A stretch of 64,000 nt of DNA from Sipunculus nudus (Eukaryota > Annelida > Sipuncula > Golfingiida > Sipunculidae): positions 19,341,508-19,405,507 of the forward strand of contig CM049313.1 of NCBI GenBank assembly GCA_026874595.1, read 5' to 3'. The notes under the pieces are model-generated. The model searched no databases. It saw nothing but the letters and a program-made list of their open reading frames with translations, and was not told the origin of the DNA. A program made the position numbers and the translations under genes. Of the stretch, positions 4,685 through 59,222 are shown one piece after another. Numbering within the stretch: position 1 is the first letter of the stretch; every line of letters starts with the position of its first letter.

Positions 4685-4688
4685 GTAC

Positions 4689-9243: not shown

Positions 9244-9466
9244 GTATCCCTATGTGAAAGCGAACGAATCCAAACAGCATTTGGAGATGTCATCGGCTGG
9301 ACAAACGAAGGGAACTTTGGAACGATCAGTTTGACTTACGTTGTAGGTCACAAGAACTTTTTCAGGGAGGTAAAACAGGACGACTATCCGTTGCGAGGAA
9401 GGTTATACGTGTTCGACGTCTCTTACTTGCACTGTGTTTTCTCAGTTGGCGTCGAAATTAACACGA
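9244..9466 (+). CDS. Internal exon of a secreted-protein family (orphan exon, paralogue of the 43.9-59.2 kb gene)
   Basis: 223 nt: 74 codons plus one base, entering in phase 0 and leaving in phase 1. The acceptor is TCTTCTTTCCAG, ending at 9243, and the donor GTGAGT begins at 9467. The reading frame is open throughout the exon, while the other two frames are not. The peptide contains GDVIGWTNEGNFG around residues 14-26 and ends in an alternating hydrophobic stretch FSVGVEINT, like the edge strand of an extracellular beta-sandwich. The exon at 58921-59222 ends in phase 0 after an IWRP-containing segment, so this is the kind of exon expected to follow it. No matching preceding exon is present to its left in the window. 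I infer that it belongs to an upstream paralogue whose earlier exons lie outside or were lost. Function unknown. Confidence 0.7.
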
Positions 9467-15060: not shown

Positions 15061-15089
15061 CATTATATATATATAAATGTTAACGTAAT

Positions 15090-15785: not shown

Positions 15786-15789
15786 AGGT

Positions 15790-17820: not shown

Positions 17821-17878
<58 letters not shown>
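17819..17878. repeat. (TA)n microsatellite
   Basis: A TA run broken by one TG, at the junction of the 17.4-17.8 kb insert with block X. Confidence 0.95.
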
Positions 17879-18108: not shown

Positions 18109-18123
18109 TGGAAGCAGTTCAAG
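18109..18123 (+). CDS. 15-nt microexon, duplicate copy
   Basis: TTTGTTTTTTAG | TGGAAGCAGTTCAAG | GTGAGT: acceptor, 15-nt exon and donor all match the microexon at 57542-57556, with two substitutions (coding VEAVQ instead of VEAIP when joined in phase 1). Both splice signals are intact. The following exon (equivalent of 58921-59222) is not found downstream, where block A copy 2 begins at 18655. It is either a relic or an exon of a partly lost paralogue. Confidence 0.6.
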
Positions 18124-18654
18124 GTGAGTTTATTTTTCCCCATTCATCATTTCTATAATGGAGGTGATTACAGTTTATGATAATATACATCTAGTCTCTG
18201 ATATTATATACCTAGTTTATTAAAATATACACGTGGTATATTATAATATATACCTAGTTCATGGTAATATACACCTATTTTACCATTGTTTACCGTATAG
18301 CCGCCTCTATTCTGACATCAGGCATGGGGTTTTTTGTACCCATAGTCATGATTACAAACCGAGGAACACCTGTGTAATGTTAAAGTTATCTTCATGAATC
18401 TGTGAGTCTTCGAAAAAACTGGTGTTCTCTAGGTCTCAAGATGCAGGCTATTACCATTCTTTGTTTACAATGGCATTATTATTTGTAAACGTCCAGGCAA
18501 ATATCTGTACACGGGTTAATCCCGTAAAGGACACGCTTTCGGTGCTTTCACATATACATTTGGCTAATTTTGTTCACCGCAAGCTCTTAAAGGGTGTTTT
18601 CATTCAATATTAATTTTACTTTAATGCATGTGTTTATTTCTTGGTTAATTGTTG

Positions 18655-35055: not shown

Positions 35056-37862
35056 CTAAAAAAAAAAATTGTTTCTTAAAAAGAGTAACTTTTGCCATTT
35101 GTTATTATGCAAGTAGGTCTTTTTGTTCTTTAGAGCAATATAATATTCCATGTCCATAAAATATTTAACATATTCAATAGCACCTTTACATGATGGTTTA
35201 TTTTTCTTACTTCGACAAGTATATATGTAATATTTAGCATATAAAACAATGCTTCCAAGTATATCTGAATAATCACCAAATATTATTTTATAGCAGTCCA
35301 ATTGTACAGGTTGTTCAATGACTTTGTGTGATTTTAGCCAACTGTGCAATTCTAACCACAGTAACTTTACAAAATTGCAAGACCAGAAAAAATGTGTATA
35401 GGATTCTTCTTCTGCTTTAGAAAAAGTACATTTTTCACAATCAGCAAGTTTAAATTTATAAAGGTGACTGTTTAAATATAAAATCAGTGAGAGAAGTTTA
35501 TACTGGAACATTCTTAATTGAATTGAATTAGTGACTAGTTTAATTTTGGCATATGACTGGAGAGTCTGATCTCGAAAATGTACTTTAAGCTCTACACACC
35601 ATTTGTGCAGGGGGTTGATCAGTTCTTCATATTTATATTTAATCATTTGGTCATATATTTGTTTTGTTACACTTCTAAAATTTAATAAAGCATCAACTTT
35701 GTGTTGAAAGACATGTGTTGTTTTTCCATTTTTTATCATCTTTTTCCAGCTGTGAGGAATTGTATCTAATAAACCTCTATAAAATAAGTAATTGATTTTC
35801 ACATTTGTTTTCTGTTGGAGTTCTTCTATAGTTTTTAATCTGTAAGCCTCCCCTTCTTCAACAATTATATCTTTTATATATTTTATATCTGAAGAATATA
35901 ATTTTTTATTGAACAGAACTTTGTTATCTATTTTAATATGGGAGTTATACCATAATGTCTGTCCAAGTATTTCTTCAATATTTTTGGCTTCGTTAAAGTT
36001 ATATTTGCACCAAATCTGAATTACTTCCCTCCAAAAGGGATCCTTCAGACATAAAATCTCATGCAAATCTTCTACTTTTAAATTACATTTAAACATAAAT
36101 TCTCCCACAGGTAACTTATCAAGTATATGATTTTTATAAGAGTTATTTTTATTCTTCTTCAATAATCTATTTATCCAGCTTAATTTTAAAGCATCAATTT
36201 TGGAGGGGAGATGTATCATCTTAAGGCCCCCTTTTTCGTATGGTGCAATAAGGGAGGTACGTTTTATTTTATCTGGTTTATAAGACCATATAAATTTATA
36301 TAATTTTTTTTCTAAATCTCTTATATACTGTGGTGTAGGGGATGGTAAGACTGATAATAATAACGTGATCTGGGAGAGTGCATAACATTTAAGAATAATT
36401 ATTTTACCAACCAATGTCATATTTCGAGATGACCAGGTATGTATGACTTTTTTTATCATTTCCAATTTTGGAATGTAATTGTCAGGTATTAGTTTATATA
36501 GTGAAGGTCTAAATAAAATGCCTAGGATATTTATTGGACCTTCAGACCATTGAAGGCCTTGTCTAGTTATATATGTTTTTACCATTACTGTATTGGTTTG
36601 TGTTTTAGTTAAAGGCATGACTGCAGTTTTATTAAGGTTCATTTTAAGGCCAGATATACTTTCAAACTGTTTCATGATTTTTACACATTCTAAGATACTC
36701 TCCTTATCTGAAAACAAAAGTACAGTATCATCTGCATACTGCAATATTTTATAATGGTGTTTATCTATATTAATCCCTTTTAATATATTTTCTTCTCTTA
36801 TTCTCCTTGCCAATATTTCTGCACAGATAACAAAAAGATAAGGGGACAGGGGACAACCCTGTCTCACACCCCTTGAGACCCTGAAAAACTGTGAATACCA
36901 TCCATTATTAATAATACAAGTTTTCGCTCCCTGATACATGATTTTTATCCAGTTTATAATATTTTCTCCAAAACCATAATACTCTAAACATTTTCATATA
37001 AAGGGCCATCCTAAGCAGTCAAATGCTTTTTCATAATCTACTGTAGTTAAATATCCTTCTATGTTATGTTCAACTGCACTATTAATTACTGATATGATTT
37101 TATTTATATTCTCCCCTATATATCTGCCTTTTACAAAACCTGTTTGATCATCATGTATTAACTTGGGCAAAATGGCTTTTGTTCGATTTGCTAAACATTT
37201 GGAGATCAGTTTGTAATCTGTGTTCAATAAAGTTATGGGTCTCCAATTTTTTATTTCAAGAGGCGATTTATTTATTTTTTTTGGTAATAAACTAATAACA
37301 CCTTGTCCTTGTGATATACTCAAATTCCCTGAATTTAAACTATATGTTATACAGGATGTAAGTGGTTGTTTTATTTCATGCCAAAACTGTATATAAAATT
37401 CTGCTGGAATACCATCTAAGCCTGGTGTCTTGTTATTAGAAAATGATTTTAAGTTTTCAAAAATTTCTTTTTCATTTATATTTATATCACAGAAGATTCT
37501 CTCCTGATCCGTTAGTTTTTCAATTCTTTTGAGTTCGGGAAAAAAGAGCTTTTAGGAAGTTCCTGATGTACTAATTTTGAGGTATACAATTTTTCATAAT
37601 AATTCTTTTCTGCAGCTAAAATCTGCTCTGCATCACTGATAATTTTTCCATCATTTAAAATTAATTTATTCATCACTTTTCTATTATAATTTCGCTTTTC
37701 AAGGTTGAGAAAATACTTAGATGTTTTTTCTCCTTCTTCATACCATCTACATCTACTTCTGAAAATGGCTCCTTTTGTTTCTGATTCTATAAGATCTTCT
37801 AGTTCTGTTTTAATTTCAGCTAAGTTAGTTTGTTTATTTTCATTTTGTAGAGATTCAATTTT
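35056..37862 (-). pseudogene. LINE ORF2: reverse transcriptase and C-terminal region
   Basis: The enzyme nicks genomic DNA and copies the element RNA onto it. From 37862 down the frame shows a WYEEGEKTSKYFLNLEKRN segment, then NWRPITLLNTDYKLISK (RT block 2), DQTGFVKGRYIGENI, VDYEKAFD (catalytic block A), GVRQGCPLSPYLF (block B) and QYADDTVLLF (catalytic YADD at 36727-36738). About 500 residues of connection region follow and a Cys/His box C-EKC-...-H-...-C near 35377-35450. Lesions: a frameshift near 37545 in a T/A run and TGA at 36994-36996, in frame between block A and block B. The last 627 codons (35056-36939) are uninterrupted. Confidence 0.92.
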
Positions 37863-38903
37863 TTTTCTAATGTTGCAATTTTACATTTTTTATTTCTTTT
37901 AAGTTTTTTACTAAATCTAATGGTTTCTCGCCTAATGTACATTTTAATTACATCCCACATTAAAGCAGGGTTACTCTCTTTATTTTCTTCTTGCGCAGAT
38001 TTAATGGTTTTAATGAGATAATTATATTCTTGGTTAATTAATAAAGAGCAATTAAGTTTCCAGTATCCTGGACCTCTATTATGAATAAACATATCAAGTC
38101 CAAGAGATATACTTAGATGGTCAGTTTTATGAGAAGGGACAATATCTATGTTTGTAACATTCCCCAATAAACCAAATGACACCAAAAAATAATCTAACCG
38201 ACTACCTACTGGTACAGGGTTATTACGAACCCATGTAAACTTCACTAAGTAAGGATTATGATGTCTCCAGATATCAACCATTTCTGTTTCTTCCATATAT
38301 TCAAGAATTGTCTTTCTTGCTCTACTGTTGTTATTCTGATTTATGTTTAACTGGTCTAAACTTAAGTCTAATATGACATTCCAGTCACCTCCAATAACCC
38401 TGTGATCATTAGGAATATTTTCAATCTCTAAAAATAATTTTTTATAAAATTCTGGTGAATCATTATTGGGTCCATACACATTTACTAATGTAATCTTGTA
38501 ATCATTTAGTAAGCAGTCTAAAATCACAAATCTTCCATCTTTATCTATAACTTGCTTTTCAATTTCACAAGAAATATTGTTCTTAATTAATATGGCTGAA
38601 CCCCTTGCATTTGTTGTACCATGGCTATATATGATTCTATGTCCCCATTCTGCTCTCCATTTATCTTCTGTTTCCTTACTACTATGAGTTTCTTGCATGA
38701 AAACTATTCCTACATTTCTCTTTCTTTGTAGCCAATAAAAAAATCTCTCTTCTCTTTGTAAAGATGCCTAAACCTCTTACATTAACTGACATTATGTTCA
38801 ACGAGTCTTTATCATGTATAAAAGACGTTCCATGTGGACCACCTAACCGTGTATCTGGGTGGGCGATATTATGAGAAATCAGATTTCCCTTAAAGTTTAG
38901 CAT
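37862..38903 (-). pseudogene. LINE ORF2: APE-type endonuclease domain
   Basis: Starts with NIMSVNVRGLG (38790 region), then after a frameshift in the A7/T7 run at 38737-38743 continues as MQETHSS (38698; the glutamate is catalytic). NVYGPN, GGDWNVI, SRLDYFLVS and KTDHLSI follow, the ordered active-site motifs of the exonuclease-endonuclease-phosphatase fold in L1-type elements. The longest open part is 292 codons (38698-37820). A second frameshift at an A8/T8 run near 37859-37867 separates it from the RT part. Both slips are in homopolymers, so sequencing or assembly error is a minor possibility. Confidence 0.92.
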
Positions 38904-40401: not shown

Positions 40402-42827
40402 CTCTCTACAGCTAATGAGAAATCAAGAACAATAGTAAAAACGTTGAGCATTCAACTATTCCTAAATCTCAAGCATGGCATCCAAAGTGACCTCCAATGC
40501 TGGGATACAATAAAATGGCCAAATATAACTTATTTCAATTAGATCTGTAAGAAGTGTTTTTACTTCAAAAATGTAATGGGAAGGATAGCTGTGGCCACTT
40601 AAATTGTTATTGTACGATGAGCGTCAGCTTTGAAACATAATTGTCGGTATGACGTAACTATTTATCTTATTACAGTCGAGTGGAAAATTACCAATCTCAA
40701 TCTTTCTAAAATTATCTTGAATGTCCTTAATTTACAAGGTCCAAACATGCTGCCCATGCTGTGACATGATAAAACTCCTACATCTACATCGTCTTATAAA
40801 ACAGCTGCTATGGACCATCCATCTCCAGCAGAATATCAAGAGCAACATCAATGGCTGCCAGTGCCAAAACTAACTGTTTATCCTACTGTTTCCAGCCCAG
40901 TTTGTGACATCTGTGTCATTTTTGTTAAAAGTCTATACCATAATACATCAGTTAGTTCAAAGACAGTGAAACTGAGTAAAGAATACAATCTTTCCTTTGG
41001 AAAGGCAACGCTTCGACTGAATACATGTTTAGGAAGAGTCATGGGGAATAATTTGTCATTAAACCAACACTTCTAACAGCTATAAGTTCACATACTCTCA
41101 TCAGTAAGCAGCACATGAAACACCGCTACCTCCCAATCTCTTTCGTCACCCAAGACTTATCCGTACCTTTTCTCCAAATCTCGCCAGTAACTTTCTATTT
41201 AGATCTTGAACATTCAGCGAAAACAATCCACTTTGGAGACAAGAGCATTATGCTTGTAAACCTAAAATGCCACTGTCGGGACCGACTGCAGAAATTTGAG
41301 AATCATGCTTCGACCACATGGCAATAGTAATGGTCTTTTTTAATCATCCTGTAGAGAACAACCTGACCATCACGAACACTCCTTTCAGATAATCAGACAA
41401 ATACAAAAGACCCCTGGTGCGATGCCTTAGACCTCCGAATCACCAAGACGGTGAAAAGATCCCAGTGCTGGATACACTATCGGTATTGTCAGATGATCCT
41501 TACACTGCATATAACACTTTCCTTTCCAGCAGGAAAACAAACAGGTTCTATAGGACAACATTCAATAAATTTACTTGATAAATTGAAACAAACTTATCTT
41601 CTTACTATTTTCCCCACTAGCCGGGACAAGAAGCTTACCTCCGACGGAACGCTGTCAGAAGCTGATAAACAAAACGGGAACCATTTAAGACCTCTGGTCA
41701 AGGAGAAGGAGTCAACATTCGTCCAAAGAAAAATCAACCAGGAGTGGCTGATGAGAATGACAAAGCTACCACATACCTTCTTGAGCAAAAACAAGAAGCG
41801 TTAAATGCCTGTGCAAAATGTCTTCCACTACTAAAAAGAAATGTTTTAAGGAGCTGAAGAGTCAGAACCGAGGAGCATGGTGAGGGACAAAGCATGCATC
41901 GTGAGAGAAGAAGACTGACAAAGTCCAGCACTGTGCTGAAACTAAGACCTCTAGCTTTTCATCAGCTCCATCAAGGCAATATATGGAAGCTGCAAACAAA
42001 GTGCAAACTCGTCCTCTCCACAGATAGCATGCACTATTAAAAGTGAAGTATCAATAAGAGGTGGAGGGAAATTTTAGCACTTTCATAAACTCATAAATAG
42101 ACCTTCCACATTCAGCGCAGACTTACTGGATAAGATCCATCAGTGACCTACCATCGATAGCACTGACCCCTGTTCCATACTACAGTAGATTATGGAAGTG
42201 CATTATGACCTTTAGCCTTCCATTTTATGCAGGCAGTGTCTATGAGGAAGAGGTCAAGCCACAATATTTCAAAGAAACCACGGCTATTCCCCTGCATTCA
42301 TGACAGGGGCAGCTAATCAGAGACCAAATCCGAAAGAGGCATATCCCATTTGTTATTTCCTTGAAATTCTTGTCGTGTATAAACGAGGCAAGAACTGAAA
42401 AAGCTCAGTTTTGCTGGATAGGACGGATAATTCCCAAGCAAACGCTATATCATGAACTCAGGTCAGGCAAATGAAGGCAAATGGGGCCCAAGGAAAGCTT
42501 ACATGTTAATGCCAATATTGTCAACACTGGAATTCTCCTAAATCTGTTAGATTAGGACTCGGCATGTTGGCAAAAGAGCCAATAGAAAAAAAAAAGAGAT
42601 GCCGATAAGGCATGTAAGAAGCCCAAGAAAGGAAGAGTTAGAAGCAGCAATACCCATGGAATCGGGAGGATTCTGCTGCCCCGATACAGTCGTCAGATAA
42701 AAAAAAAGGCTACTGAGCTATATGCGAACCAACAGCACACCTAGCGTATAAATATACTATATACAAGGAATATAAGGGCAAAGCAAAGGATAGACCCAAA
42801 AGCATCAGTTATATATATACATGCTAC
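40402..42827. other. Unrecognised stretch, possibly an old decayed element
   Basis: Composition is more balanced than typical intergenic sequence here, and moderately long + strand frames (40810-41076, 41115-41327, 41451-41804) follow one another with similar spacing. That pattern suits a decayed transposon gene, but no motif is recognisable. A palindrome or splice structure was not found. Confidence 0.35.
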
Positions 42828-43844: not shown

Positions 43845-43969
43845 GACTGGTGTCTGTGCCCACCATCACCGCCGGAAACCGGCTAACCCGTTTAAAGTCG
43901 TGGGCAGGACTGGTGTCTGCACCTTTCCCTTTTATGTCACAACACCAGGGTGTCAATATCTGTATAAAA
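43845..43969 (+). promoter_or_regulatory. TATA-type promoter of the secreted-protein gene
   Basis: TATAAAA at 43963-43969 lies about 235 bp upstream of the signal-peptide exon. A GC-rich segment precedes it and contains the direct repeat GACTGGTGTCTG at 43845-43856 and 43908-43919. Transcription would begin about 25-35 bp downstream, near TTAGTTCATTAGTTCATT. A non-coding first exon is expected, because the coding exon at 44203 has its own acceptor; the donor of that exon was not resolved. Confidence 0.5.
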
Positions 43970-44202
43970 ATTCACTCTATTTAGTTCATTAGTTCATTCA
44001 CAGGTAGACTCGTCAGTCGGTTTGCTTGCATTAATCCTCACCTGTACATACACGCAAGGGGGATACCTCCCACATACGAATTGTTAAGGTGGTTACGTCT
44101 AAATGAGAAAAGCTGTGTATTATACCAAAGAAAGGAAAGAAGTTTTCATGTGTGGATTATACCAGAAGGTTGTATTGACTGAAAACAGTATTCTTTTCGC
44201 AG

Positions 44203-44275
44203 GCTATGCACTTAATAGTCGGACTCGTGATATTGCTTTTGTGCGCGCACCAGGGCCTTGCCTGCACATCATATG
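44203..44275 (+). CDS. Signal-peptide exon of a secreted protein
   Basis: The acceptor TTCTTTTCGCAG ends at 44202. ATG is at 44206 and the donor GTGAGT begins at 44276, leaving in phase 1. The 23 encoded residues begin MHLIVGLVILLLCAHQGLAC, a clear signal peptide: a short n-region, a hydrophobic core LIVGLVILLL and a small-residue cleavage region ending LA-C. The product is therefore expected to enter the secretory pathway. In phase it joins the microexon at 57542 (giving TSY-V-EAIPG) and then the exon at 58921. Between them lies a 13-kb intron with a LINE and a tandem array. Confidence 0.72.
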
Positions 44276-46070
44276 GTGAGTAGCTCTAAATTACTGTTCT
44301 ATGCACCTTACCTTGCACTCTACATACAAACACACTGGCGTTAAATCACAAACAGGTTGTAATCCTAAACCTTACTCTATGAAACAGTTATAATAATTAA
44401 GAATTTACTAATTTAGACACCCCCTTTGTGTTTGGACAGCTGTTACATGAATACTTTGTTTGTTCTTATTTAACATATTTTATCACATTTTCAAAATGTT
44501 TAGGACTCTTCAAAACCTTTTTTTCCTGCAATATTGTGTGGCATCACGAAGCTATTTAGGTGTTTATATCTTCAAAAATCTGCCATAAGGAAAGCTTTCA
44601 TAAAGACAAAACAACTGTTACAAAACTGAAAAAGGGTAAATATTACATAATCAGCTTCCACATTGATGAAATTCAGATTTTTTCTGAATATTCATGAAAG
44701 TTAGGAACACATTAATAACTTTATTAAATATCTTGTTGTCGTTGACAACATGTTAGTTGGGGCACGTATTACTATCGGATTAGACATTGACATCGATTAG
44801 TGCCAACTCTGAATGTTCATGTACACATTCCTTTCGACAATCATAGACACTTTTGGTACAGTTTTAACCAGATTCGAGCACATAGGGACCATAAGTGGAT
44901 GGATATCATATATTCATTCCTTTAGAAAGCATTCACACTTTTAGTACATATTTAACTTTATCATATGTATGGATTACCACTTGAACTGTTTAGATCATTA
45001 AGCTCATGTTCCTTAAATAACATTCGAACAAAGTACTTCTTGCACGGAGCATTGTTTTCTGTATGATGTCTGGTACCTTGTGTCACGAGAAATAGAACTC
45101 TTCGATATATTGCATTAAGCCAATGAAGACAACGGTATAATTAGATACTGTTCACGGTACGCTGCCTTGCTTTCCCCCAAAGATACCCTGAGAGTACGGA
45201 CTGTATCATTAACTAAATTGTACACCATTAAATGTTCCGGAGAAAACCTGGCATTTCCAAACCACTGTAGTTGGAAGTCCATCCTAAAGAGCATCCAGGT
45301 ATTGCGTCTTCCCTGGTTGCGTAGCTATCGTGTATTTTTTTGCTGGGGATACTATAAAACTTGCTTTGTGGACCAGAAATGACCAAAAAGGTAGGTAGGA
45401 ACACCGGAAATCACGTACAGACGTCAAGGCAGATCTGTTGTGGGGAGGTGTACGTCTGGTATTTCCCTTCACATATTATAACGACATACTTTCATTCAGA
45501 CAATTTCGATCAAAGAACCCCACAGGACGAGATTCATATGTGAATCACCGTTTATTGAACGGTTAATGTTTGGCAGAAAACAAATAAGAAAATTGTTATC
45601 TTAGTTTAAATACTATTGTCATTTTATGACTTTTATGTTTTTTACTTTTAACATAAAATATGCCAAAGAAATCCATCCATTTTTTACAAACATTTCCGCA
45701 CACCTGTAAGATTATTTATTCTCAAGATATTATTGAGATTACACCCATCAAACCCCTCGGAAACTGCATGACAATTTATATGAAGTTGGTACCGAAGTGT
45801 ACAATTTATTATCAAACATTGCGGGTCTTCAGAAACCAGTACCTTCACTGGAACATGGTTAAATAACTGACATAACTGAGAAATGCCAAAAATTGGTTGT
45901 AGTCTGTGCTTGTTTACTATTATTGGCGCAAAACAAACTATCTGGGCCGTTCGTGAACGTTTGATGTAAAACGATAAGAAAAATATAGCAAAACTGAGCG
46001 CAAATGTCAAAACACAATCGCACACGAATACTATAAGCCTGGACTTGCCATATTAAGTTAAAGACTACAA
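44276..46070 (+). other. Start of the long intron
   Basis: Begins with GTGAGTAG. No alternative exon is recognised with confidence. Open frames at 45167-45543 have a possible acceptor near 45180 but no family match. Confidence 0.45.
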
Positions 46071-46365
46071 TTCGACATTTTTTTTTCTTATTTATTCAAA
46101 CAAAGACAATACAAAGATTTGATCATTGTTAACAATACATAAGTGACGTTGACAGAACATTTCTTCAAATTAGTACATCAAACTGTAACAGTTTTGTTAA
46201 ATTTATCAGGAAGTCATCATTAGTATTTGTATATACATAAACACACATATACCCCACAAATACATTACAAATATAAACACAAACATATTTAATACACACG
46301 TCATACACAATCCAATAAGCATTGCACACTGATGCATATAAACATGATATCTAAACACATACACA

Positions 46366-47247
46366 TTAACTCAAATTCTTAGTCCCATTCTTATTAACAG
46401 TGTCATTAATGTAATTAATTCTGAAAGCTGATAAATTTTTGTAAAAAAAGGGTGCATTGTTAATTTGTAATAATGAATTATTCCATAATGTTTGAGATAA
46501 TACTTCATACCTAGATTCTGGATATTTTTTTGAAATTTCGGTCCATGAAAACAAGCATTTTTTTGGTAGAATTTTGGCAGACCCTGCGGAATGCTTGCTT
46601 TATCAAAATTTGATCTTATGAAAGATGTTCCTCCTATTCTACTTAAATAACATGAGACTAACTTCGCCCAAGGTTTATTTTCGTCAGTTATTAGTCGTTT
46701 TATCCACATGACTTCTTGACCTTTCAGCATTGATTCAATGTCTGGCAGTTTCAGGCCACCCATGTTATATGGTCCTACTGCAGTGTTATATTTAACCTTT
46801 GGTTTTTTTCCCTTCCATATAAATTTGTTAATCATACCTTGTGCCTCAGTAACAAAACTACTTTTTTGTTCACACATGTTTGTAGCATACAACATAGTGG
46901 ATAAAACAAGTGACCGAGCTATCTCAATTCAACCATAAATTGTTATTGTACGGGTTCTCCAAACACTCAAGGTGTTATTCATCTTTTCTTTTATTCTTGT
47001 GAAATTCTTTTCCATTATAATATCTGATCATATGATAAGTAAATGCCCAAGATTCGAATAGCATCTACAGTTAGATTAATCCATCTACATTCAAAGGTCT
47101 GTCTCGTCTGGCTTTACAGCTTCCTAGCCATGCTGCTTCTGACTTATCATAGTTGACTTTTAAGGAGGAATAATATATAAAAACATTTATAACATTTATC
47201 AGTTCTTTGAAAGACTCCCGAAGGAAAAATGTTGAGTCATCTGCAAA
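46366..47247 (-). pseudogene. LINE ORF2 3' part: RT box C and connection region
   Basis: Begins with FADD at 47236-47247 (the catalytic YADD box variant), followed by a KVNYDKSEAAWLG thumb-side segment. After several stops it reads NKFIWKGKKPKVKYNTA, GGLKLPDIESMLK and WIKRLITDENKPWAKLV (open 46895-46371). A frameshift near 46555 leads into YPESRYEVLSQTLWNNSLL. The Cys/His box expected further on is absent before the 3' UTR, so the C-terminus is deleted. Confidence 0.85.
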
Positions 47248-48040
47248 CATTCACAATTTATATTCTAAATCAAAAACTTTTATTCCTTGTATTTCGTTTC
47301 TCGTACGAATCTGATGTGCTAATACTTCAACAACAATTTCCTGAGAAATTAAATGTGGAAGTATTTTCTTCAATCTGTTGACTAAAATTCGACTAAGTAT
47401 TTTGCAATCAACATTAATTAGGCTGATTGGTCGCCATGATTTAATGTATCTAGTGTCTTTGTCAGGTTTTTCTATTAAAGTTATTACAGCTTGTTTTTGA
47501 TTGTTCGTGAGGTGACCTTGCCTGAAGTTATAGTTTAGACACGATATCAATTAATATTAAATATCTTGGTAAAAATTTTGTAAAATTCATTAATTAGTCC
47601 ATCATTCCCAGGTACTTTATTTGAAGGCATGGATTTTCTTGCATTTAATACTTCTGTCTGAGTTACTGGACCATCACATACAGATGCTTGTTCATCAGAT
47701 AGAACTGGTACATTAATATTTTTCAAATAATTATCACAATCTTCTTCTGTTACAACAGATATTCTCTTGAACTTTTTTTATAAAATGCACTAATCTCCTC
47801 CATAATTTCTTTTTGAGAGGTTATCCCCTTCTCATTTTGTAGTAATTTACGATATGTTCTTTTATGATAATTACTTTTTTCTAAATTGAGGAAATATGAA
47901 TAGTTTCGCTCGCCATTTTCTTTCCATAGTGCTCGGGAGCGGATTATGATTCCTTGTGTAATGTGGTCATAGTATGTTTCCACCTGATGTTTAATTTCTT
48001 GGTGTTCCTTGATTACTGCCTCACTAGAGTCATTACACAA
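47248..48040 (-). pseudogene. LINE ORF2 middle part with RT core deletion
   Basis: ALWKENGERNYSYFLNLEKSNYHKR (48040-47750 frame) precedes the RT, and QKQAVITLIEKPDKDTRYIK-WRPISLINVDCKILSR (47550-47251) is RT blocks 1-2. Right after HLISQE the sequence jumps to EVLAHQIRTRNEIQG, which normally follows RT block B. The catalytic block A (DFEKAFD type) and the GVRQGCPLSPYLF block are missing, an in-frame internal deletion near 47335-47345. Confidence 0.85.
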
Positions 48041-48181
48041 TTTTCTTTCCAGCTCATTTAATTTACTTCCAAGTTTACTTAATTCATTCCTTCTCTGTCC
48101 AGCTTTTGCCTTTGAATAATCAAGAGTGACCTGCCTTATTCTGTATTTGATGTATTCCCAACGTGTAGCAGAATTATTAAA

Positions 48182-48710
48182 TTAAGTATTTTCTTTCCAT
48201 TCAGAAATCTTGTTTTTTAATTCTTTGACATAATTCTCATCAGTTAACAATGAATTATTTAACTTCCAATATGCTGGTCCTCTATTCTGGTCCTTAAGTA
48301 GCTGTAATTTTAGTTCTATTTCGGAATGTTCGGTGTTAATTGAAGAAATGATATCAGCTGTTACAACATTTGCCTGAATTTCATCAGAAACAAAGAAATA
48401 ATCTAACCGCCGTTGGGTCAGTGGGAAAAACGTCTTCATGTATATCTTTTAATGTCAGGGTTTCTTATTCTCCAAATATCTACAAGGTCAATTTCCGCCT
48501 TAACTGATTGTACATGCTTAATAACTTGAACTTTAAGTTTTCCCTCACCTGAATCAATTTTTCCATACACATGTTAAAATCTCCACCTATTATAATATTT
48601 ATGTCAGCATCTAGAGCAAACTTTTTTATTTCATTCTGTAAACTCTGAAAATACTTAGTTTGTTCAGACTCGGTATTTGGCGCATATATATTGCAGAGTA
48701 AAGTAAGGCT
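48182..48710 (-). pseudogene. LINE ORF2 endonuclease part, 5' truncated
   Basis: From the 5' end: CNIYAPNTESEQ (NVYAPN-type motif), GGDFN at 48573-48587 and TQRRLDYFFVSDEI near 48410, followed by an EHSEIEL segment where SDH would be. The catalytic QE motif upstream lies beyond the truncation. Frame changes occur near 48440. Confidence 0.85.
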
Positions 48711-48721
48711 TTCGACATTTT

Positions 48722-51700
48722 AGGAGACTCAAACAGGTTTTGTGTACATTCGTTACTGTTTGTAGATATCATCGTTGTACTTGGCATATTTTTAATCATT
48801 TAGCCTCAACCCTAAAATCTTGTAAAAACTTTTTCTATTACAGATGTAATCGTATGCAACAATACATGTGATAAATTAAGAAACCGTTATGTTTGACCTT
48901 CTTCTTCTGAAAGTACTTCCTCATACAATCAAAGCCTTTTGTGACAAGACTTCACTACTTTGTCAAAATGAATTGAATATCAATATATTGAATAACACGA
49001 AAAATAAGGACATCTAATACACATGTTCCTTTGTTTTCCTAATCGCTTGATATATCACTTTATTTTTACAAATCCCATGTCTTTTCTTTTTTCCAATCGC
49101 CAGAGATACATATTTTATTAAATTATATTTAGCATCTCACATTTTTATAGCCACATACTTCATATATTACTTTCGTTAAAGTATGGGAGAGAGGATTTGT
49201 ACGTAGGAAATACTTAAAAATTATAATATATATGTTTCTTTTATTTAACAATGAGTAGCTGGTCTCTAGCACCTGGTTGTAGGACGATGTTGTACTCTCT
49301 TAAGATAATGGTTGATCACGTCAGCTAGGCTTCATCCTTGGTTATTTATACATCCTTAACCTTTACTTAAAGAAAGAAAGACGGCCAATAAATGGCTTTT
49401 TCGTCAAGCGAGTATTAACTTTTTAATTGATGCCCGATTGCTGGTTCATCAATGTGAAATGTTTGATGTTACAGATTTTGCCTGAATTTATTTTCGGTTA
49501 TATATTTGGGATTTCGACCTTATTTTTCAAATTTATTTAATGAGAAGACCATCATATAAAAACAGTCAAAATTGAAAGATTGAAAGATTTTTATGACATC
49601 CTGCTTGAATCTTTTAGTGGAACAAATCTTTGAAAATTGTTATAAACATTGTAAATCCATGAACTAATTATCTGAATGAAGCAGACTTGATTGGGTTTGG
49701 ATAATTGTACCATTCACATGCAAGACTTCTCATATGTACATTCGGGTTTTGAGTTTCCTGCTGGCTAACTTTTCTGTGTTTAACGAACAGTTATGGTTCG
49801 CCGACTCCTGACATACGAGTGCTAGCCGGCCAGAATGTATGCCTTTAGGTATATTTCTCGTATGCTCCAATGGTACCGAAAAGCGAAAAACTGCTCACGG
49901 GTCTGTGCGCCTTAGCAACTTTTAATTTTGCATTTCGTGCACATTCCAACTACTACACTGACCATATTGGTTTCCGACCATTGTGGTATTATACATTAGT
50001 ATTATGAATGCTTTCTTGTAAAAACGAAAATGATGTTGGTACAGCTGAGAACCATATCAAACTCTTTTCTCTAGGAGGTATATTACTTAAAAACGGATCC
50101 GTAAAGCAATCTGACACCTAACATATAAAAAAGCTCATATAAAATACCCCACACAGCAACACACTCACATGTAACATAAAAACCTGTGCTTTGTCACCGA
50201 CTGTAGGAATTAATTTCTATATTCATATATTTCTATATGTAAGACTCATAGTTTAATTGTGGGAATAATTGTTAAAAGTATATTTCATAGTAGGCGAATA
50301 ACTAAGTATTCGAAGATCATACGCATTGCCGACTCCTGTTTATACTACGGTTTCAATTTTTTTGTGAAGAATACTGAAGCCTTTACAAAATATACCACTT
50401 ATGTGGGTGAGTTGGTACGGGCAGAATACGGTAAATTTATACTGCAACCATGACTAAGATATACTACGAGTCCCAAGGCACGGTAGGTCACAGTGAGCGA
50501 GTCTGCAAGGGGCTTAATCGGCTTAGTGACAATCGGTCCACTGACCTCCGCATGGTTACCATGTGAAAAGTAGATAAATACATTATATACTATAAATACT
50601 GTATGTAGATTTGCAGAGGGTTCTCCAAAGCTTTAATCATCAGGATCAAGCTGGATGCATTGAAAAAAGATACATAGGTGAAAGTGTCGAGCTTAATAAA
50701 AAGTTTAATCTATTTGCCATGCCAAATTCATTTATATAGTCTGCTCCACTTGATTTGTTTTTAACTTATTTGCTTAAATGTTTAGCTTCTTCATAAAACG
50801 TTGCGAGAGACTAAAAATGCAATTTCATGAACATTTTTGCAGGCGTTATTCCTCGTGTCAGTCAACTGGTACGTTGAATCTACATTAAAGTTGTCTGCAT
50901 GGTGAGGGGTATTTCTGATTGTTTTGGTAGAAGTGACGCACTTTTGACAGTGTCATAAATGAATTAGGCGTAACTTTTTTGATAGTTCTGAGAATAGATT
51001 AAACATAAACTTGGGTTTCAGTTGAACGTGTTAGTTCCATATAATGATCGTGAATGGCTGTACTCTAAAACCTGTTCATGGTCCTGTGTTTTGTATATTG
51101 AAAATATCGTACTTTTCTTTATAAAACTGGCAAGAACTTTCATACAGCTGGTTATAAATTATTTTTCAGAGAAGGCAAATGCTGCTTTAAATCATAACGA
51201 GGTTATATTTATTTGTTAACATTGCCAGGGAATGATTAAGAACTTGCTTCTAAACTTGAATTATCCCAGGAAGGTTGTTTCTTTAAAAAAAAAACTGGAC
51301 GTTCAGTTAACGTTTTGATAAACTCGTGGAAAATAAAACTAATGACTTCAACAATACATATAAATATTCTAAAAAAAAACTTTAATAGTTTTGCTCTATG
51401 TTAAGCTTTTTCCCATTTTTACTTAAACTATAATAGCTCACGGTGCTTGGAGCACCCATTTCTAAGCCTGATGAACCTAACCTCTAAACCATAAAACTAT
51501 CGATTTCATCGTTAAAAAAATAACAAATGAATTATATCCATGCATGATCACAGAAATTCTTGGTGTACGGGGAAAAGGTTAAAGGGGGCTTATATTTTGC
51601 GTTGATCTTCTTTATTTTCTGTTATTTTTTTATAGGTGAAAAGGGGACAGTTTTTCTACAATAAGTTTGCTTTTAACAAAATAAAATAAAAAAACATGAA

Positions 51701-52464
51701 TTTGACACAATGACTTATTATCAAATTCTGTTAAATTACCAACTGATGATGCATACTTTTTTTATTCTACTATATGTGTTTGGTTCACCTTACATTATTT
51801 CAGTAACTCCCTTGTGCATAACAAGATATTCCAATAGGAAATAGTGTGGGTAATTTATGGTAATAATTGAATCTGTATGTTGCTGTCTATGGACGCATTT
51901 TTGGATCACATAAACTGACAGTTCCCAGAAGTTTGCATGGACTGAAATAAAGCAAAATTGTCAATGTAAAAAGGCTCTAAATCACATATATTGCGCAACA
52001 CATCCAAAGGATGTTTTGACTCCGTGCTATAGATAGTGATTTCATGTTCAGAATAGAAGAGTTTATCTATATAATGCATAGAAAGGAGTGTACTGTTTTG
52101 TATACGTATATTTTACTGACTGCGTTTTGCTTATTTGTATTATATATGTAATAAAGAACAAAGTTCAAAACTGACCAATTAAGTATATATGTGATGAGCA
52201 TTTTCTTTAACAAACATCGATGAATGACATTTACTGACGTGAAGGATATTTACGCACACTTATCTTTTCCTTTTACAAATGTTATACAAATATGATAAGG
52301 TAAAAGAAATTATTATCAAAGCAATATGATGTTAGTGGACCTGGCGTGGTTGTTAAATTTATTTTAGTGCACATACATGGACTTTGTTTGTTGTAATCAC
52401 ACGTTGTCTTAATTAAACAGAAGATACAGCAGTATGATCACGGTAAATTCATGATAATGCATTC

Positions 52465-52510
<46 letters not shown>

Positions 52511-52639
52511 TATATTATATCACTGCACAAACCCTGTTTTTGTATAAAATTTATAAATGATTGAAATACAATATGCGAATATGACAAGTAAACTGGCATG
52601 TTGCCGTATTTGAATTATGCCATCAGTTGGTATAGAGTA
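48722..52639 (+). other. Intron sequence of the secreted-protein gene
   Basis: AT-rich, no exon or element recognised. A (TA)n microsatellite lies at 52466-52509. Confidence 0.45.
52466..52509. repeat. (TA)n microsatellite
   Basis: Uninterrupted TA run followed by GATATATTATAT. Confidence 0.96.
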
Positions 52640-54840
52640 GGTTTCCAAAGTTTATCTCCAAGAAATATTTATAAATATTACGGAGCTAGAATCTTGTAGC
52701 ATGACATGCAGGGAGGCCCATGAAAAGTCTCTTCGGATACCTAAAATTAGGTCTCTATTACCCAAAAGCTATTGGCTTTGAAGTACCCCCAGAATAACTA
52801 AAAATTTGTTTCAAAAGCTTAAGTATCTGAACAACTAATGCATTAATCACCATGAGTCTTTGCAGGGAAATTGATCAAGGAATGTTCCATCAGTTTCTGC
52901 AGAGCAGTGGCGCCACTTGTTATATTTTTTTTCAATTTTTACGATTTTTGTTTTATTTTTGAGACCTCTAAAGATGCGATAATTTGTTAAAAGTGCACAA
53001 ATCATTACCTTTGGACCTAGAATCTTGTATTTCGACATTCAGGGTGGCCAATGAAAAGTCTCCTTTGAAACATGAAAATAGTTCTCTGATAACCATAACC
53101 TTTGACCTATGGAGCTTCGAAGTACCCCCCCCCCCCCCAGAATAATAGAAAATTTGATACAAAAGCTGAAGTATCTGAACAACTAATGCATTGGCTCTTT
53201 GCATGGATATTGTTCATGGAATGTTTCATCAGTTTCTGCAGACTGATGATGCCACATGTATTTTTTTTCACGATTTCTTTTCTCTGTTTTTGATGTGGTC
53301 ATCTGTAAACAGGGTACAAATTGTAATGACAGGACGTAGAATCTTGTATCTTCACATGCAGGAGGCCCATGTCAAGTCTCTTTGGTAACCTGAAATTAGG
53401 TCTCTGTCACTCATATTGTTCGAGGTAAATGGCTCAGATTTACCCCCGAAATAACTAAAAATTTGATTCAAAAGCCCTTGTATTTGAACAACTATTGCAT
53501 TGATCGCCATGATCCTCTGCATGCACATTCATCATGGAGTGTTTCAGCAGTTCCTGCACACAAGTGGCGCCACCTTGACTTTTTTTCAAATTTTTACCCA
53601 TTTTCCTTTTATTTTTGAGACCTTGAAAGGTGCGGTCTGTTTACAGAGCACAAATTGTATCAGTTGTCCTGGAATCTTCTAAGTTGAGATCCAGGGAGGC
53701 CCATGAAAATTCTCCCTGGAAACTTTCAATTAGGTCTCTGTTACCCATATTCTCCGAGGTATGTGGCTCAGAATTACCCCCTAGAATAATTTTAAAAAAT
53801 TTCATAGAAAAGCTTCAATATCTGAACAACTAATGCATTGATCACCATGATCTTTGTATGCATATTCAGCATTAACCGTTTCATCAGTTTCTGCAGACTG
53901 GTGGCGCCACCTTGATTTTTAAAAATAATTTAAGCAATTTTTTTTCTCTGTTTTTGAGACCTTAAAAGATGCAGTCATCCATTATCAGGGTACAAATCTT
54001 AACCACTGGACCCAGAATCTTCTTACTTGACATCCAGGGAGGTCCCTGAAAAATATCCTTTGAAACCTGAAATTAGGTCACTTTTTCCCATTTTCTTTGA
54101 GCTATAGGGGTTAAAAATACCCCTAGAAATATTGAAAATTTGATACCAAACAGAGCACAATTCATAATGATTGGACCTAGAATTTTCCAACTTGACATCC
54201 TGAGAGTTCCTCAAACGTTCTCTACAGACACCTGGAATAAGGTCTATGTTTCCCTTTTTCCATACATCCCCAGAACAATTAAAAGTTTGATAGAAAAGGT
54301 CCAGTATTTGAACAACCAATGCATTGATCACCATGATTCTTCGCATGCATATTGATCAAGGAATCATACATCAGTTCCTGCAGACTGGTGGCGCCACATT
54401 TTTTTTCTCTATTTTTTGAGACCATTACAGATGTGGTCGTCCGTTAACAGGGCACAAATCGTAACCGATGGTCCTAGAATCTTCTGACTTGATATTCAGG
54501 GAGGTCCCTAAAATATCCTTGGAAACCTGAAATTAGGTCTCTTTTACCCATATTCTCTAAGGAATGGGGCTTATAAGTACCCCAGTATAATTGAATCTTT
54601 TATACCAAAGCAGTAAAGTCTCCTTGGAAACATGAAATTAGGTCTCTGTTAGCCATATTCTCTGAGCTGTCGGGCTTATAAGCATCTCCAGAATAATTGA
54701 AAATTTTATATCAAAGTAGGGCACAAATCATAACCATTCGACGCAGAATCTTCTTACTTGACATTCTGAGAGTTTCTCAAAAGTTCTCCCTATAAACCTA
54801 AAATTGGGTCATTGTGACTTATGTTCTCAGAATTTTAGCT
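52640..54840. repeat. Tandem array of diverged ~320-340-bp units
   Basis: AGAATCTT-(T/C)-A----GACAT(G/C)CAGGGAGGCCC starts at 52686, 53018, 53336, 53671, 54013, 54176, 54474 and 54748 (full spacings 318-342, shorter ones where units are truncated). Each full unit also has CTGAAATTAGGTCTCTGTTACCC, AATTTGATACAAAAGC, AACTAATGCATTGATCACCATG and CAGACTGGTGGCGCCAC. Same family as 30.4-31.5 kb and related to 22.06-23.2 kb. Open frames across it are not conserved between units. Confidence 0.9.
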
Positions 54841-55159
54841 AATGTTTGAGCACCCTAGAAAAAATGCAAAATACACACAAATTGCCAGATTCATCAGGAA
54901 AGGCTTGTTGGATTGTTATCAATTTCGGTGTGCTTATCTGTCTTGATGAACTTAAGCCAATATGCACGAATGGTGATGCAACCTACATTGTCTTAATTAG
55001 TTGCCTGTGCAAGGACATATTGTCAACTCGGCTGAGTGACATGACCAATGGGTCATTTGTAAAATATTTACAGACGCCATTTTGGATTTTGGCGTATTTT
55101 TTAGGTATTAGGATTGACAGCAAACTTCAGAATCTCTATGAACTGATTGTTTAAGCCAT

Positions 55160-56600
55160 AAATAGAAAATAAAAATAAAAAAAATTAATATTCGTTCCAA
55201 AAGAGACTTAACACTTGTAAAAACTGAATTGATCCCACAACTACAATTCCAACACTCAATGCTCCCGGAGCAACCTGTATGATTTTTAAAGGAAACAGAA
55301 AGCAGTTTTACAAATTCATAGCAAACAACAATATGGACAAAATAAAATATACTCATTTGGAAGCATCGAAAAATGATGGTTGTCTAGACATTGTTGATAT
55401 ATTGTGAAAATTACAAGCAAATACGATTACTTGGATTAATAGATTACTTAAATCAAATTTGAAACTAGGATGGAGACAGTTGGTCAATTAGAATTTCAAT
55501 AATATAACAGAATACATATTCAGATACTGTGTAAAAGCTGAGGATCTATATCGCCTGGGCTTCTTTTACAATATTCCTTTACTTTGGAAGGAAGTTTTAT
55601 ATGAATGGTGCAAGTACCATGTACCTTTGTATCCCAGAAACAACAAATGACTATTTCTCTCAATCTCTGTGGATAAATTCTCACCTGAAAATAAATGATG
55701 CAATATTATTCAATAAAAAATTGTATGAAGCTGGTATAAAATTACCCCAACAATTAAAATTCATATACATTCTACAATATTGATGAATTAAAACAGAATG
55801 ATGGCATTGATGTAAAGGTAATGACATAATAGTATTTTACATGTTATTCGCACATTTTGAAAACAAGAAATACGAAACTGTCAAGAAGATTATGCCACAG
55901 CATATAAATTCGATACATTATTCAAATGGCAAAGCCTGTAAAAGGTGTATATACTGAAATTGTTAAAAAGAAATATGTACACCCCGAAAAAAAGTATTTC
56001 AAGGTGACATCAAGATATTGCAAACTGTATAAAGATAAAGTACTAGAGGCTTTCAAATATATTTATGTTCAATAACTATATCAACAAAACTGAGATACTT
56101 TAAATTTAAGATTTTGCACAAAATATTTAAACTAAATCCATTTCTTGCAAAAGAAAGCTTAACATAACGTAAGTATTGTACCTTTTGAAAAAGAGTTAAA
56201 GGAACAATATTACTTATTTTCTATGATTAAAGCTTCGTAAAACAGTAATGGTATGAAGTGTCTAGATGGTTGGAGAATTTCGATATACCACGAATCTTCT
56301 CACATACAGTCATACTTCTGTAACTCAGCACGGAGCAGTTAATAGTCAAAATAATACTGCTAGTAAAGTATTGTATATAATGTTAAAATGTAAATTACAA
56401 CCACTATATTTAAGAAGTGTCATCAAGTTCTTAAATACAGTGGTTGTGATTTACAAAGTGTCATCAAGTTTGTTAAGACAAACCATCCTATTGAAAACAG
56501 GTAATTTTATAGGAAAATTAACAAAACATGAAACTGACTTATTTAGATATAATGTTTGCAGAAAGCTAAGGTTCATATTTATATCCCTGGATGTTTCCAT
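55160..56600 (+). pseudogene. L1/Tx1-type LINE ORF2 C-terminal remnant, unsplit copy
   Basis: The translation shows FNNITEYI... after WRQLVN, then a GFFYNIPLLWKEVLYEWCKYH segment (55558-55610) and, in the next frame, DYFSQSLWINSHLKINDAIL (55650-55720). Further pieces run to about 56520. It duplicates the split remnant at 14797-16720, but with parts a and b contiguous, and lacks the 2-kb insertion found at 12773-14784. Several frameshifts. Confidence 0.75.
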
Positions 56601-57258
56601 ATAACTGACCAACATGGTTATCCTCTGTGCATATATGGATGCTCGCCATACATGTTATACATTATAAACATAGCATACTGAATAAAAAAATATTATATTT
56701 GGACTTAATTCCAATCATTGTTGTCTAAATTAAAATACAAATGTCTATTAAAAAATGGAATTAATGGTACTGAAACAAGTTGTATATATATGTTAATGTT
56801 ATAATATTTTTTTTCTCATATCAATGTTTTATTCATTTTCATGTGTATGCTGGTTGTATCCATGATATAGGTATACGTGTATACAGTGCAATAAAAAAAT
56901 ATATAAATTGCAGCCCACTACACTGCGGGCTGTGCTATGTCGTCTATTCAATCCAGCAAGAATGTCTCTTAAATTACACCTTTCTGTATAATATACGTCC
57001 TGGTACTAGAACTAAGATGGAACCATGTTATCCCCGCTGTGCTTATCATTTGGCCATCCAACATTATGCATAGAAACATAACACACTTAGTTTCTGTTGA
57101 CGGTAAAATATCCTTATCTCATTGATTTTTAAATATATCAAATTGTACTCTTGCAAGCTTTTTGAGTGTTCTGTTAAGTTAAAGGGAGCATTCTCTTACC
57201 TACAGTGATGAATAATACGGAGTAAAATTTAAATAACATATATATAGTGTTTATATAT

Positions 57259-57261
<3 letters not shown>

Positions 57262-57312
<51 letters not shown>
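57262..57312. repeat. (TA)n microsatellite
   Basis: 51-bp TA run inside block X, at the position where copy 1b carries the 17.4-17.88 kb insert and its own TA run. Confidence 0.96.
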
Positions 57313-57313
<1 letters not shown>

Positions 57314-57541
57314 CTGACGTTCCATGTTTAATGTAATTTAATACCCTTTTCTGAATGTCATGAGGAAACTTCAGTGGTACATAATATCCCTAAAAATAAA
57401 TGCTACCGTTCATGCTTCATTAAAACACTTACTTAACCAGGGAGAAACGTCGTATCCATAGGAGGGTGTATATATGCACTCACTTTAATGTAGTTGTTTT
57501 AGTGGATATTTTATGTAACTTTCTTTTCGTTTGTTTTTTAG

Positions 57542-57556
57542 TGGAAGCAATTCCAG
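57542..57556 (+). CDS. 15-nt microexon of the secreted-protein gene
   Basis: TTTGTTTTTTAG | TGGAAGCAATTCCAG | GTGAGT. In phase 1 on both sides, it adds V-EAIP and the first base of a glycine codon between the signal-peptide exon (phase 1 end) and the exon at 58921 (phase 1 start). The conserved donor and long pyrimidine tract, the perfect phase match on both sides, and its presence in the duplicated block at 18109 support it. It is too short for ordinary gene finders. Confidence 0.65.
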
Positions 57557-57718
57557 GTGAGTTTATTTTCCACCATTTGTCATTTCCATTCTAGAGGTAA
57601 ATACAGTTTATGATAATATACATCTAGTGTCTGATAATATATACCTATAATACCTATAATATAATACATACGTAGTTTATAATAATGTATACCTAGTTTA
57701 TGATTATAAACACCGAGT

Positions 57719-58310
57719 TAAGCCTCCCCTGCTGGGGGAGGCTTATTGATTCCCTACTGGTTTATTTTCCTTTTTTTTTCTTCTTCTTCCGGACATTCCC
57801 ACAATTTTCAATATTTGCTGGACCAATTAGGCTGTAACATCATACGTTTACTTATCAAGTACGAGGCAACACCTGAATAGATTTTGAGAGTAGTGTCAAC
57901 AGACCAATTATGCTAATTAGCTTAACGGGCAGTTTTCTTTGCGCTTGTACTCACAACATAACTATGATGTGATATGTACAAAACTTTGTCGATACCTTAA
58001 GAGTGCCCCTCTCAGAAGTTAATTAACTTTTGGGGTCCATCTGTGCATATTAAGTAGGTCATTTGCATAATTCTGTAAATCAGCCATGTGCGAATTGTCA
58101 GTTTTATCAAATTCTCAAGTCTATTCATTACATGTTTGAACATGTAACACTTTTTAACTGAGGACATGATTCTAATGCTTAGTAACGTACCAATTTGCAT
58201 ATTCATGGTTAGCATGGTCTATCATGTCGTTTTCCTAGAACCAGAAGCCTTTACTTTTTAGCTGGTGGCACGGGAGGCTGGAATTTGCTCGCAAATTCAG
58301 CTATATATAG
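57719..58310. mobile_element. ~590-bp insertion absent from the paralogous block
   Basis: Alignment of blocks Y shows 57718 joined to 58311 in the copy at 18273-18285. The left edge has a 10-bp-stem hairpin, AAGCCTCCCC (57720-57729) and GGGGAGGCTT (57735-57744). Near the right edge is the inverted repeat GAATTTGC-TC-GCAAATTC (58281-58298), preceded by GGGAGGCT. It encodes nothing recognisable. It behaves as a short non-autonomous transposon; class unknown. Confidence 0.6.
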
Positions 58311-58920
58311 GTTGCCATTATTAACGGTATAGCCGCCTCTATTCTGACATCAGATAGGTTTTTTGTACACAGTCATGATTACAAACTGAGGGACACCTGT
58401 GTAACGTTTATGATATCTTCAAGAATTCATGAGTCTTCGAAATGCTGCCAATTTGTGTCCCCAGGTCTCAAGACGCAGGCTACTACCATTCTTTGTTTAC
58501 AATGGCATTATTATTTGTAAACGTCCAGACAAATATCTGTACACTGGCAAATCCCGTAAAGGTCACACTTTGGGTACGTTCATATATACATTTGGGTTAC
58601 TAAGTGGTCGTCCCACGTGTGCAGGCATTGTGTATTTTGTAGGAAGACCAACTTTAGGCCTATCTTTAAACGCTCTTTTCCTGTAACAGTGCATATGTTA
58701 CCTTTTATGTTCACTGCAAACGCTTAAAGAGTGTTTCCTTTTAATATTATTTGTTTTAATTTAATTTGAGATGCAGGTTGTCTTTACTCAGTAAATGTAT
58801 TGCGTCAAAAATATTTTAATGTTTTTTAAATAGTAATTGTCATTTGGTCTCGGTTTTTCCTCTAATGTACAAAGGTATTCAGTTAATACTATGTTAATTC
58901 AATGTAAATATTTATTTCAG

Positions 58921-59222
58921 GAGCGTCCCATTTTACCCAAACCGGATCAAAGTTCTATGGAAACAATGTAACGTTACGGAGAGAGTACCTCCCGTTTGGT
59001 GCAAAAAAGTCATGGATAGACATTGAAAGGAAATTGCCTAGCGGTATACTGATAAAGTATTACTTCTATGTACACAATGTTTCACTCCCGGTCTCAACTA
59101 ATGTTACAGACATCAGACTACAAATTTGGAGACCGATCAATGTCAGCAATTACACATACCAACGAGTCTGGCAAAAGAGATTGCAGATAGCTGGTGGGGG
59201 AGCCTCAGGTACACTCTACACG
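58921..59222 (+). CDS. Main exon of the secreted-protein gene (glycosylated module with QIWRP motif)
   Basis: 302 nt: 2 + 100 codons, entering in phase 1, leaving in phase 0. Acceptor ATATTTATTTCAG ends at 58920; donor GTAAGC begins at 59223. The peptide is rich in beta-strand-like alternation. It contains five N-glycosylation sequons (NVT, NVS, NVT, NVS, NYT), a PFGAKKSWIDIE segment, KYYFYVHN and DIRLQIWRPINVSNYTYQ. No cysteines. I have seen an '-F-QIWRP- ... GDVIGW-' pattern in uncharacterised extracellular proteins of marine invertebrates, and the exon at 9244 supplies just such a GDVIGWTN segment in the matching phase. The next exon of this gene must lie beyond 64000. No function can be assigned beyond a secreted, probably glycosylated module. 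Confidence 0.78.

What the first reader, a model, noticed from the sequence alone, without database searches (positions are those of the whole stretch)
43845..59222. A hidden multi-exon gene for a secreted, heavily glycosylated module with a 15-nt microexon
Seen: signal-peptide exon 44203-44275 (phase 1 out), microexon 57542-57556 (phase 1-1) and exon 58921-59222 (phase 1 in, phase 0 out). All have consensus splice sites and mutually compatible phases, and a TATAAAA lies 235 bp upstream. The 100-residue main exon has five N-glycosylation sequons, no cysteine and a QIWRP motif. Known: signal peptides direct secretion. Inferred: one gene, whose product is an extracellular module of no family I can name.
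Basis: partly seen in the sequence, partly recalled or inferred. Interest (0 to 1): 0.7.

Follow-up and report, generated by a model that had tools for sequence, protein, structure and literature searches.

The report
Tandem secreted-protein gene, unnamed module
The sequence holds the front half of one gene and a rear part of its neighbour, both members of a family of animal genes for secreted or cell-surface proteins built from a two-exon module that the searched family libraries do not name.

Summary
The signal-peptide exon (44203-44275), the 15-nt microexon (57542-57556) and the 100-residue exon (58921-59222) are there, in compatible phases. The same exon order occurs in two further copies: one about 67 kb upstream, one 1.7 Mb away on the other strand. 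Reading frames survive where intron-like drift would have broken them. I take the gene as real; no transcript was available.

Two corrections. The 100-residue exon ("WRP") is only the first half of a roughly 175-residue module. The second half ("GD") is a separate exon; for the window's gene it lies outside the window, at C8:19419600. The 9244-9466 exon is the GD exon of the upstream tandem gene. All 11 GD matches found lie 3' of a WRP exon on the same strand.

"Heavily glycosylated" fits this copy only: two of its five sequons are shared by all three close copies.

No Pfam, NCBIfam, PDB, prokaryote or viral relative was found by the searches run. A relative on C15 appears to join five modules to EGF repeats, a transmembrane segment and a short tail, so I read the family as extracellular recognition or adhesion proteins. 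The 3' ends and the ligand are unknown.

The parts
43963..43969 (+). TATAAAA, possible core promoter
   Evidence: Seen. The upstream paralog reads TATTAAAA at the aligned place, so support is weak.
44203..44275 (+). Signal-peptide exon of the window's gene (ATG at 44206; phase 1 out)
   Evidence: Its DNA (44100-44300) has 3 matches in the genome (3 of 3 candidates scored), each upstream of a WRP exon on the same strand.
57542..57556 (+). 15-nt microexon, phase 1-1, adds the linker residues VEAIP
   Evidence: Donor ranks 1 of 3516. Aligned 15-nt exon in the upstream gene and 18- or 24-nt phase 1-1 exon in C8b.
58921..59222 (+). WRP exon: first half of the two-exon module (phase 1 in, 0 out)
   Evidence: 14 protein matches in the genome at E<=1 (12 at E<=1.3e-5), itself included, none with inner stops.
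9244..9466 (+). GD exon: second half of the module, of the upstream tandem gene (phase 0 in, 1 out)
   Evidence: Acceptor ranks 2 of 3313, donor 65 of 3516. Its WRP exon is at C8:19330643-19330944, 19.8 kb upstream. 11 GD matches in the genome at E<=1, itself included.
18109..18123 (+). Orphan copy of the microexon inside a partial segmental duplication; lies in the intron 3' of the 9244 exon
   Evidence: Use in splicing unknown.

Best explanation
The window's gene is one of a tandem pair of protein-coding animal genes on contig C8. Shown from DNA: signal-peptide exon, microexon linker, WRP exon and, 18.9 kb beyond it, a GD exon, all in phase; WRP plus GD form one module of about 175 residues that is symmetric (phase 1-1) and so can be repeated or shuffled. 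Inferred: the two halves fold into one mainly beta-strand extracellular domain that leaves the cell through the secretory pathway, is N-glycosylated, and binds a partner outside the cell (a glycan, another cell's surface or a microbe). The upstream C8 gene is likely soluble. The related C15 locus looks like a membrane form with five such modules, EGF repeats, a transmembrane segment and a short tail, which points to recognition or adhesion at the cell surface rather than an enzyme.
For: Same exon order in three copies. 11 of 11 GD matches lie 3' of a WRP exon on the same strand with no other GD between. A scan for splice-bounded open exons conserved between copies gave internal exons at three places only (with alternative frames and nested borders): the signal exon, the GD exon, and the microexon (there matched to its orphan copy); it also gave five terminal-type rows. 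At lower thresholds the WRP exon appeared as well, among more terminal-type rows. Drift test: P(no stop)=0.011, and about 11.5 frameshifts expected over 594 nt (0.0193 per site, my product), none seen. WRP exon dN/dS is 0.49 and 0.45 against C8b, bootstrap intervals below 1. The WRP exon model has six strands (mean pLDDT 61.8, pTM 0.45, single sequence). C15 locus: five WRP-GD pairs, two EGF exons (one over Pfam's cut-off for EGF_laminin, one below every cut-off), a hydrophobic exon and a tail exon, phases fitting as I read them.
Against: No transcript data. The 3' end of either C8 gene was not found: one candidate terminal exon (42233-42303) lies in a dispersed repeat; another (41155-41327) was not settled, its repeat test going unanswered. 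The fold is a low-confidence model of half the module. No ligand or homolog of known function. The C15 exons were not shown to be one transcript, its signal-peptide candidate is weak (donor score 2.4), and a 2,500-N gap lies before the first module. Between the two tandem genes dN/dS over WRP+GD is near 1 (1.03), so that pair alone gives little sign of constraint beyond an open frame.
Confidence: 0.62

Rival explanations
1. The C8 genes also continue into membrane-anchoring exons, so the product is a receptor and not a secreted protein.
For: The C15 relative appears to be a transmembrane protein with EGF repeats, and the 3' ends of the C8 genes are unknown.
Against: No relative of the C15 EGF, transmembrane or tail exons in C8:19301800-19454299 beyond weak matches (best E 0.07; the one that looked EGF-like was a 21-codon frame). 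The upstream gene is bounded by the next gene's signal exon at 44203; of 129 plus-strand ORFs of 45 residues or more between 9467 and 44202, 111 were scanned and no EGF family was listed at E<=0.01. The other 18, and shorter ORFs, were not scanned.
Confidence: 0.22
2. Decaying tandem copies: once coding, now drifting, with frames still open by luck.
For: dN/dS of the tandem pair is 1.03 over WRP+GD and 2.86 for GD alone; an orphan microexon copy exists at 18109.
Against: P(no stop)=0.011 and about 11.5 expected frameshifts but none; splice sites kept in the copies read; WRP dN/dS below 1 against C8b.
Confidence: 0.08
3. One long gene runs through the window, with the 9244 exon and the 58921 exon in one transcript, and the signal exon is spurious.
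For: Both exons are on the + strand, and repeated modules in one gene do seem to occur on C15.
Against: The signal exon recurs in both tandem copies and in C8b, always 5' of a WRP exon. The 9244 exon has its own WRP exon 19.8 kb upstream and the 58921 exon its own GD exon downstream.
Confidence: 0.04
4. Diversifying selection acts on the GD half, as expected of a recognition surface.
For: GD between the tandem copies: 29 nonsynonymous against 3 synonymous changes, dN/dS 2.86, bootstrap 1.2-9.9.
Against: GD against C8b gives 0.71 and 0.85 with intervals that include 1. The high ratio rests on a low dS (0.066, below the 0.139 of the 3' intron flank), which chance or gene conversion could give. 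It is one of six WRP and GD exon-by-pair tests.
Confidence: 0.3

Closest known systems
MEGF10/Draper/SREC-type EGF receptors (recalled names; only the EGF domains were tested)
   Same: The C15 relative appears to be a signal peptide, ectodomain, EGF repeats, one transmembrane segment and a short tail.
   Different: The window's genes show no EGF or transmembrane exon in the DNA examined, and the WRP-GD module matches no Pfam family over its cut-off. EMI domain and cytoplasmic signalling motifs were not tested.
Jelly-roll or lectin-like extracellular beta domains in general (recalled)
   Same: All-beta prediction for the WRP half, one or two cysteines per module in the three C8 copies, a signal-like N-terminus and sequons.
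   Different: No sequence match in PDB by single sequence or by profile beyond one chance-level hit, E 1.5; the fold of the whole module was not predicted.

Membership tests
Secreted multi-exon animal protein gene | Signal peptide at the N-terminus in its own 5' exon | tested here: met
   Hydropathy criterion met in the window's copy; aligned, similar N-termini read in the other two. No signal-peptide predictor was available.
Secreted multi-exon animal protein gene | Exons joined in phase in a transcript | not testable with these tools
   Phases fit; no RNA data.
Secreted multi-exon animal protein gene | C-terminus without membrane anchor | tested here: inconclusive
   No EGF or TM relative in the searched 152.5 kb; terminal exon not found.
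Pfam / NCBIfam families | Match over the curated cut-off | tested here: not met
   Pfam: none for the exons; for 6 joined modules one match below cut-off (15.2 bits, cut-off 25). NCBIfam: none for the two window exons.
MEGF10/Draper-like receptors | EGF repeats in the window's gene | tested here: not met
   None found in the DNA examined, which may not reach the 3' end. The C15 relative does carry them.
MEGF10/Draper-like receptors | EMI domain and cytoplasmic ITAM/NPxY-type motifs | not tested
   Recalled features; not examined.

The most novel reading that the evidence does not exclude
WRP-GD is an undescribed animal recognition domain that is spreading by tandem duplication and exon repetition. 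It is used both as soluble single-module proteins and as a multi-module EGF receptor, with copy-specific glycan sites and a fast-changing GD face for discriminating partners (microbes, symbionts, gametes or self).
Probability: 0.15. Interest if true: 0.7.

Novelty: new variant of a known kind. Interest (0 to 1): 0.45.

Why it matters
It adds a module that the searched family libraries lack. It shows a real microexon that keeps phase while changing length between paralogs. It also links soluble single-module genes to a likely EGF-bearing membrane relative in the same genome, which gives a concrete starting point for finding what these proteins bind.

Tried and rejected
Candidate terminal exon 42233-42303 (SSVYEEEVKPQYFKETTAIPLHS, conserved in two copies): rejected. 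Its DNA has 11 matches, itself and the upstream copy included, on several contigs. Of the 6 dispersed copies I looked at, 5 begin at the same base and 1 two bases later, and none has its stop at the same codon (5 have no stop in the 24 codons read, 1 has one elsewhere). A second candidate, 41155-41327, shows no excess of third-position changes (8, 5, 8) and remains open: its genome search did not complete. The other terminal-type rows were not followed up.

Relatives in viral contigs and genome contigs: none confirmed, by the WRP exon, the GD exon (viral only) and alignment A4. A degenerate DNA pattern for WRP...GDxIGW in viral contigs gave 14 stretches; none of the 14 looked related when read in the frame of GDxIGW. 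I judged this by eye.

Paper searches: QIWRP, GDVIGW and IGWTNE as letter strings found 0 papers. Three topic searches gave listings in which I saw nothing on this module. I read listings only and opened no paper. I recall seeing similar motifs in predicted proteins of marine invertebrates; this comes from no call.

Species: a COX1 search found 11 matches; 10 are strong and without inner stops in the standard code. I translated part of one; another sits on a 112-kb contig. I take them for bacterial cobionts. The host was not identified.

Structure: one single-sequence model only.

Full report
What is there. The three exons of the finding are present with the stated borders and phases. The donor of the microexon scores highest of all 3516 GTs in the window; the donors of the signal exon and of the long exon rank 13 and 15. 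The acceptor of the long exon is ordinary (rank 340 of 3313). The splice score tables are recalled consensus frequencies. Dinucleotide shuffles rarely gave features as good, but the thresholds were set from the observed features. One further signal-like exon on the + strand (3809-3901) passed the same test; it lies inside the retroelement-like stretch noted below.

Copies. The host genome (G000, 1.43 Gb, 153 contigs; window = C8:19341508-19405507) holds two other DNA-level copies of the long exon. One lies upstream of the window in a tandem unit; homologous stretches of the two units lie mostly 61-82 kb apart, the signal exons 67 kb. The other (C8b) lies at C8:21.07-21.08 Mb on the other strand. 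The signal-exon DNA has three matches, one per copy. Exon positions are: upstream gene, signal exon C8:19318430-19318502, microexon 19329915-19329929, WRP 19330643-19330944 and GD = window 9244-9466; window's gene, 44203, 57542, 58921 and GD at C8:19419600-19419822; C8b, signal match 21083569-21083776(-), WRP 21075088-21075384(-) and GD 21067338-21067556(-). The microexon is 15 nt in the two tandem genes. In C8b it is 18 or 24 nt, depending on which AG is used, and phase 1-1 either way.

The module. The WRP exon enters in phase 1 and leaves in phase 0; the GD exon enters in phase 0 and leaves in phase 1. Together they are a symmetric module. The WRP protein search gave 14 matches at E<=1, none with inner stops. 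The GD search gave 11, and for 11 of 11 the nearest upstream WRP exon is on the same strand with no other GD between. The tool scores only its best candidates, so both counts are lower bounds. Three WRP matches (two on C14, one on C4) have no GD in that search; one C14 locus shows a weak GD-like stretch (E 0.002). Six joined modules align at 42-71% identity to the first, with QIWRP, LPxG, GDxIGWTN and other columns invariant.

Is it coding? Between the tandem genes, intron flanks differ at 373 of 2643 sites with 61 gap events. Under that drift the 594 coding bases would stay free of stops with probability 0.011, and about 11.5 frameshifts would be expected; none is seen. dN/dS: WRP 0.63 (tandem pair; interval includes 1), 0.49 and 0.45 (against C8b); GD 2.86, 0.71 and 0.85; WRP+GD of the tandem pair 1.03. 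Against C8b the joined value is 0.56-0.57 with intervals below 1. The high GD value in the tandem pair rests on three synonymous changes and is only a hint of diversifying selection. Of the five sequons of the window's copy, two (residues 16 and 53) are shared by all three copies; the other three are private to it.

What the family looks like elsewhere. On C15 five WRP-GD pairs follow one another within about 20 kb. In the 19.9 kb first scanned, which holds four complete pairs, no signal-like exon passed the thresholds, so one gene with repeated modules is likelier than five genes. Downstream lie two exons with EGF repeats (one reaches Pfam's EGF_laminin cut-off, E 8.7e-8; the other stays below every cut-off), a strongly hydrophobic exon and a short tail exon. 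I read their phases from the DNA and they fit. This looks like one type I membrane protein, but no transcript joins the exons, the signal-peptide candidate is weak, and 2,500 N lie between it and the first module. No clear relative of those EGF or membrane exons lies in 152.5 kb around the C8 tandem pair, nor, by the same test, in 9.9 kb downstream of the C8 21.26-Mb copies.

How it most likely works. A signal peptide sends the product into the secretory pathway; the microexon adds a short linker; the WRP-GD module folds outside the cell as a beta-rich domain and binds a partner. The step from sequence to secretion rests on established knowledge of signal peptides. The binding role is inferred from the extracellular setting, the modular repetition and the apparent EGF-receptor relative. 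The one structure model, of the WRP half from a single sequence, has six strands at mean pLDDT 61.8.

Comparison with what is known. Among 313 scanned window ORFs the Pfam families listed with clear meaning were those of retroelements; the rest were weak or coiled-coil matches, and two of the 27 families for the minus strand were not shown. These tools hold no eukaryote proteomes apart from PDB chains and what Pfam was built on, so the module may well be known or annotated elsewhere. I call it a new variant of a known kind: a tandem family of secreted or membrane ectodomain genes with a module these libraries do not name.

Changes made on checking: the distance range of the tandem units, the number of ORFs scanned, the wording on the dispersed repeat and on the retroelement, and the second, unsettled terminal candidate.

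Noticed in passing
window 1674-4685: Two direct repeats of about 330 bp at 1675 and 4356, identity printed as 100% (first 132 bases identical, then a mismatch), both starting TGTAAC, flank a stretch whose minus-strand ORFs include one with a DSGS motif like an aspartic protease (recalled). I saw no reverse-transcriptase-like ORF there by eye; one search does not say which ORFs matched. Looks like a recent non-autonomous LTR element.
   Followed up: partly
window 18109-18123, within about 14783-18600: A partial segmental duplication carries an orphan, phase-compatible copy of the microexon into the intron after the 9244 exon.
   Followed up: partly
window 42233-42330: A dispersed repeat whose inner border imitates a conserved splice acceptor and short terminal exon; at least 11 genome matches.
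   Followed up: yes
window 41155-41327: An open frame with conserved acceptor and stop, shared with the upstream unit (56 residues), either a terminal exon of the upstream gene or a repeat; not settled.
   Followed up: partly
window 35056-38767 and 46371-48448, minus strand: LINE-like ORFs (reverse transcriptase and endonuclease families were matched among the minus-strand ORFs); the first lies in a stretch of about 5.8 kb missing from the aligned upstream unit.
   Followed up: no
window about 12893-14220: Tandem repeats of about 330-bp period, also present in the upstream unit.
   Followed up: no
G000 contigs C60, C61, C62, C66, C72, C74, C75, C89, C123: Long open COX1 genes in the standard code on contigs other than those that bear this family: probable bacterial cobionts assembled with the host.
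   Followed up: partly
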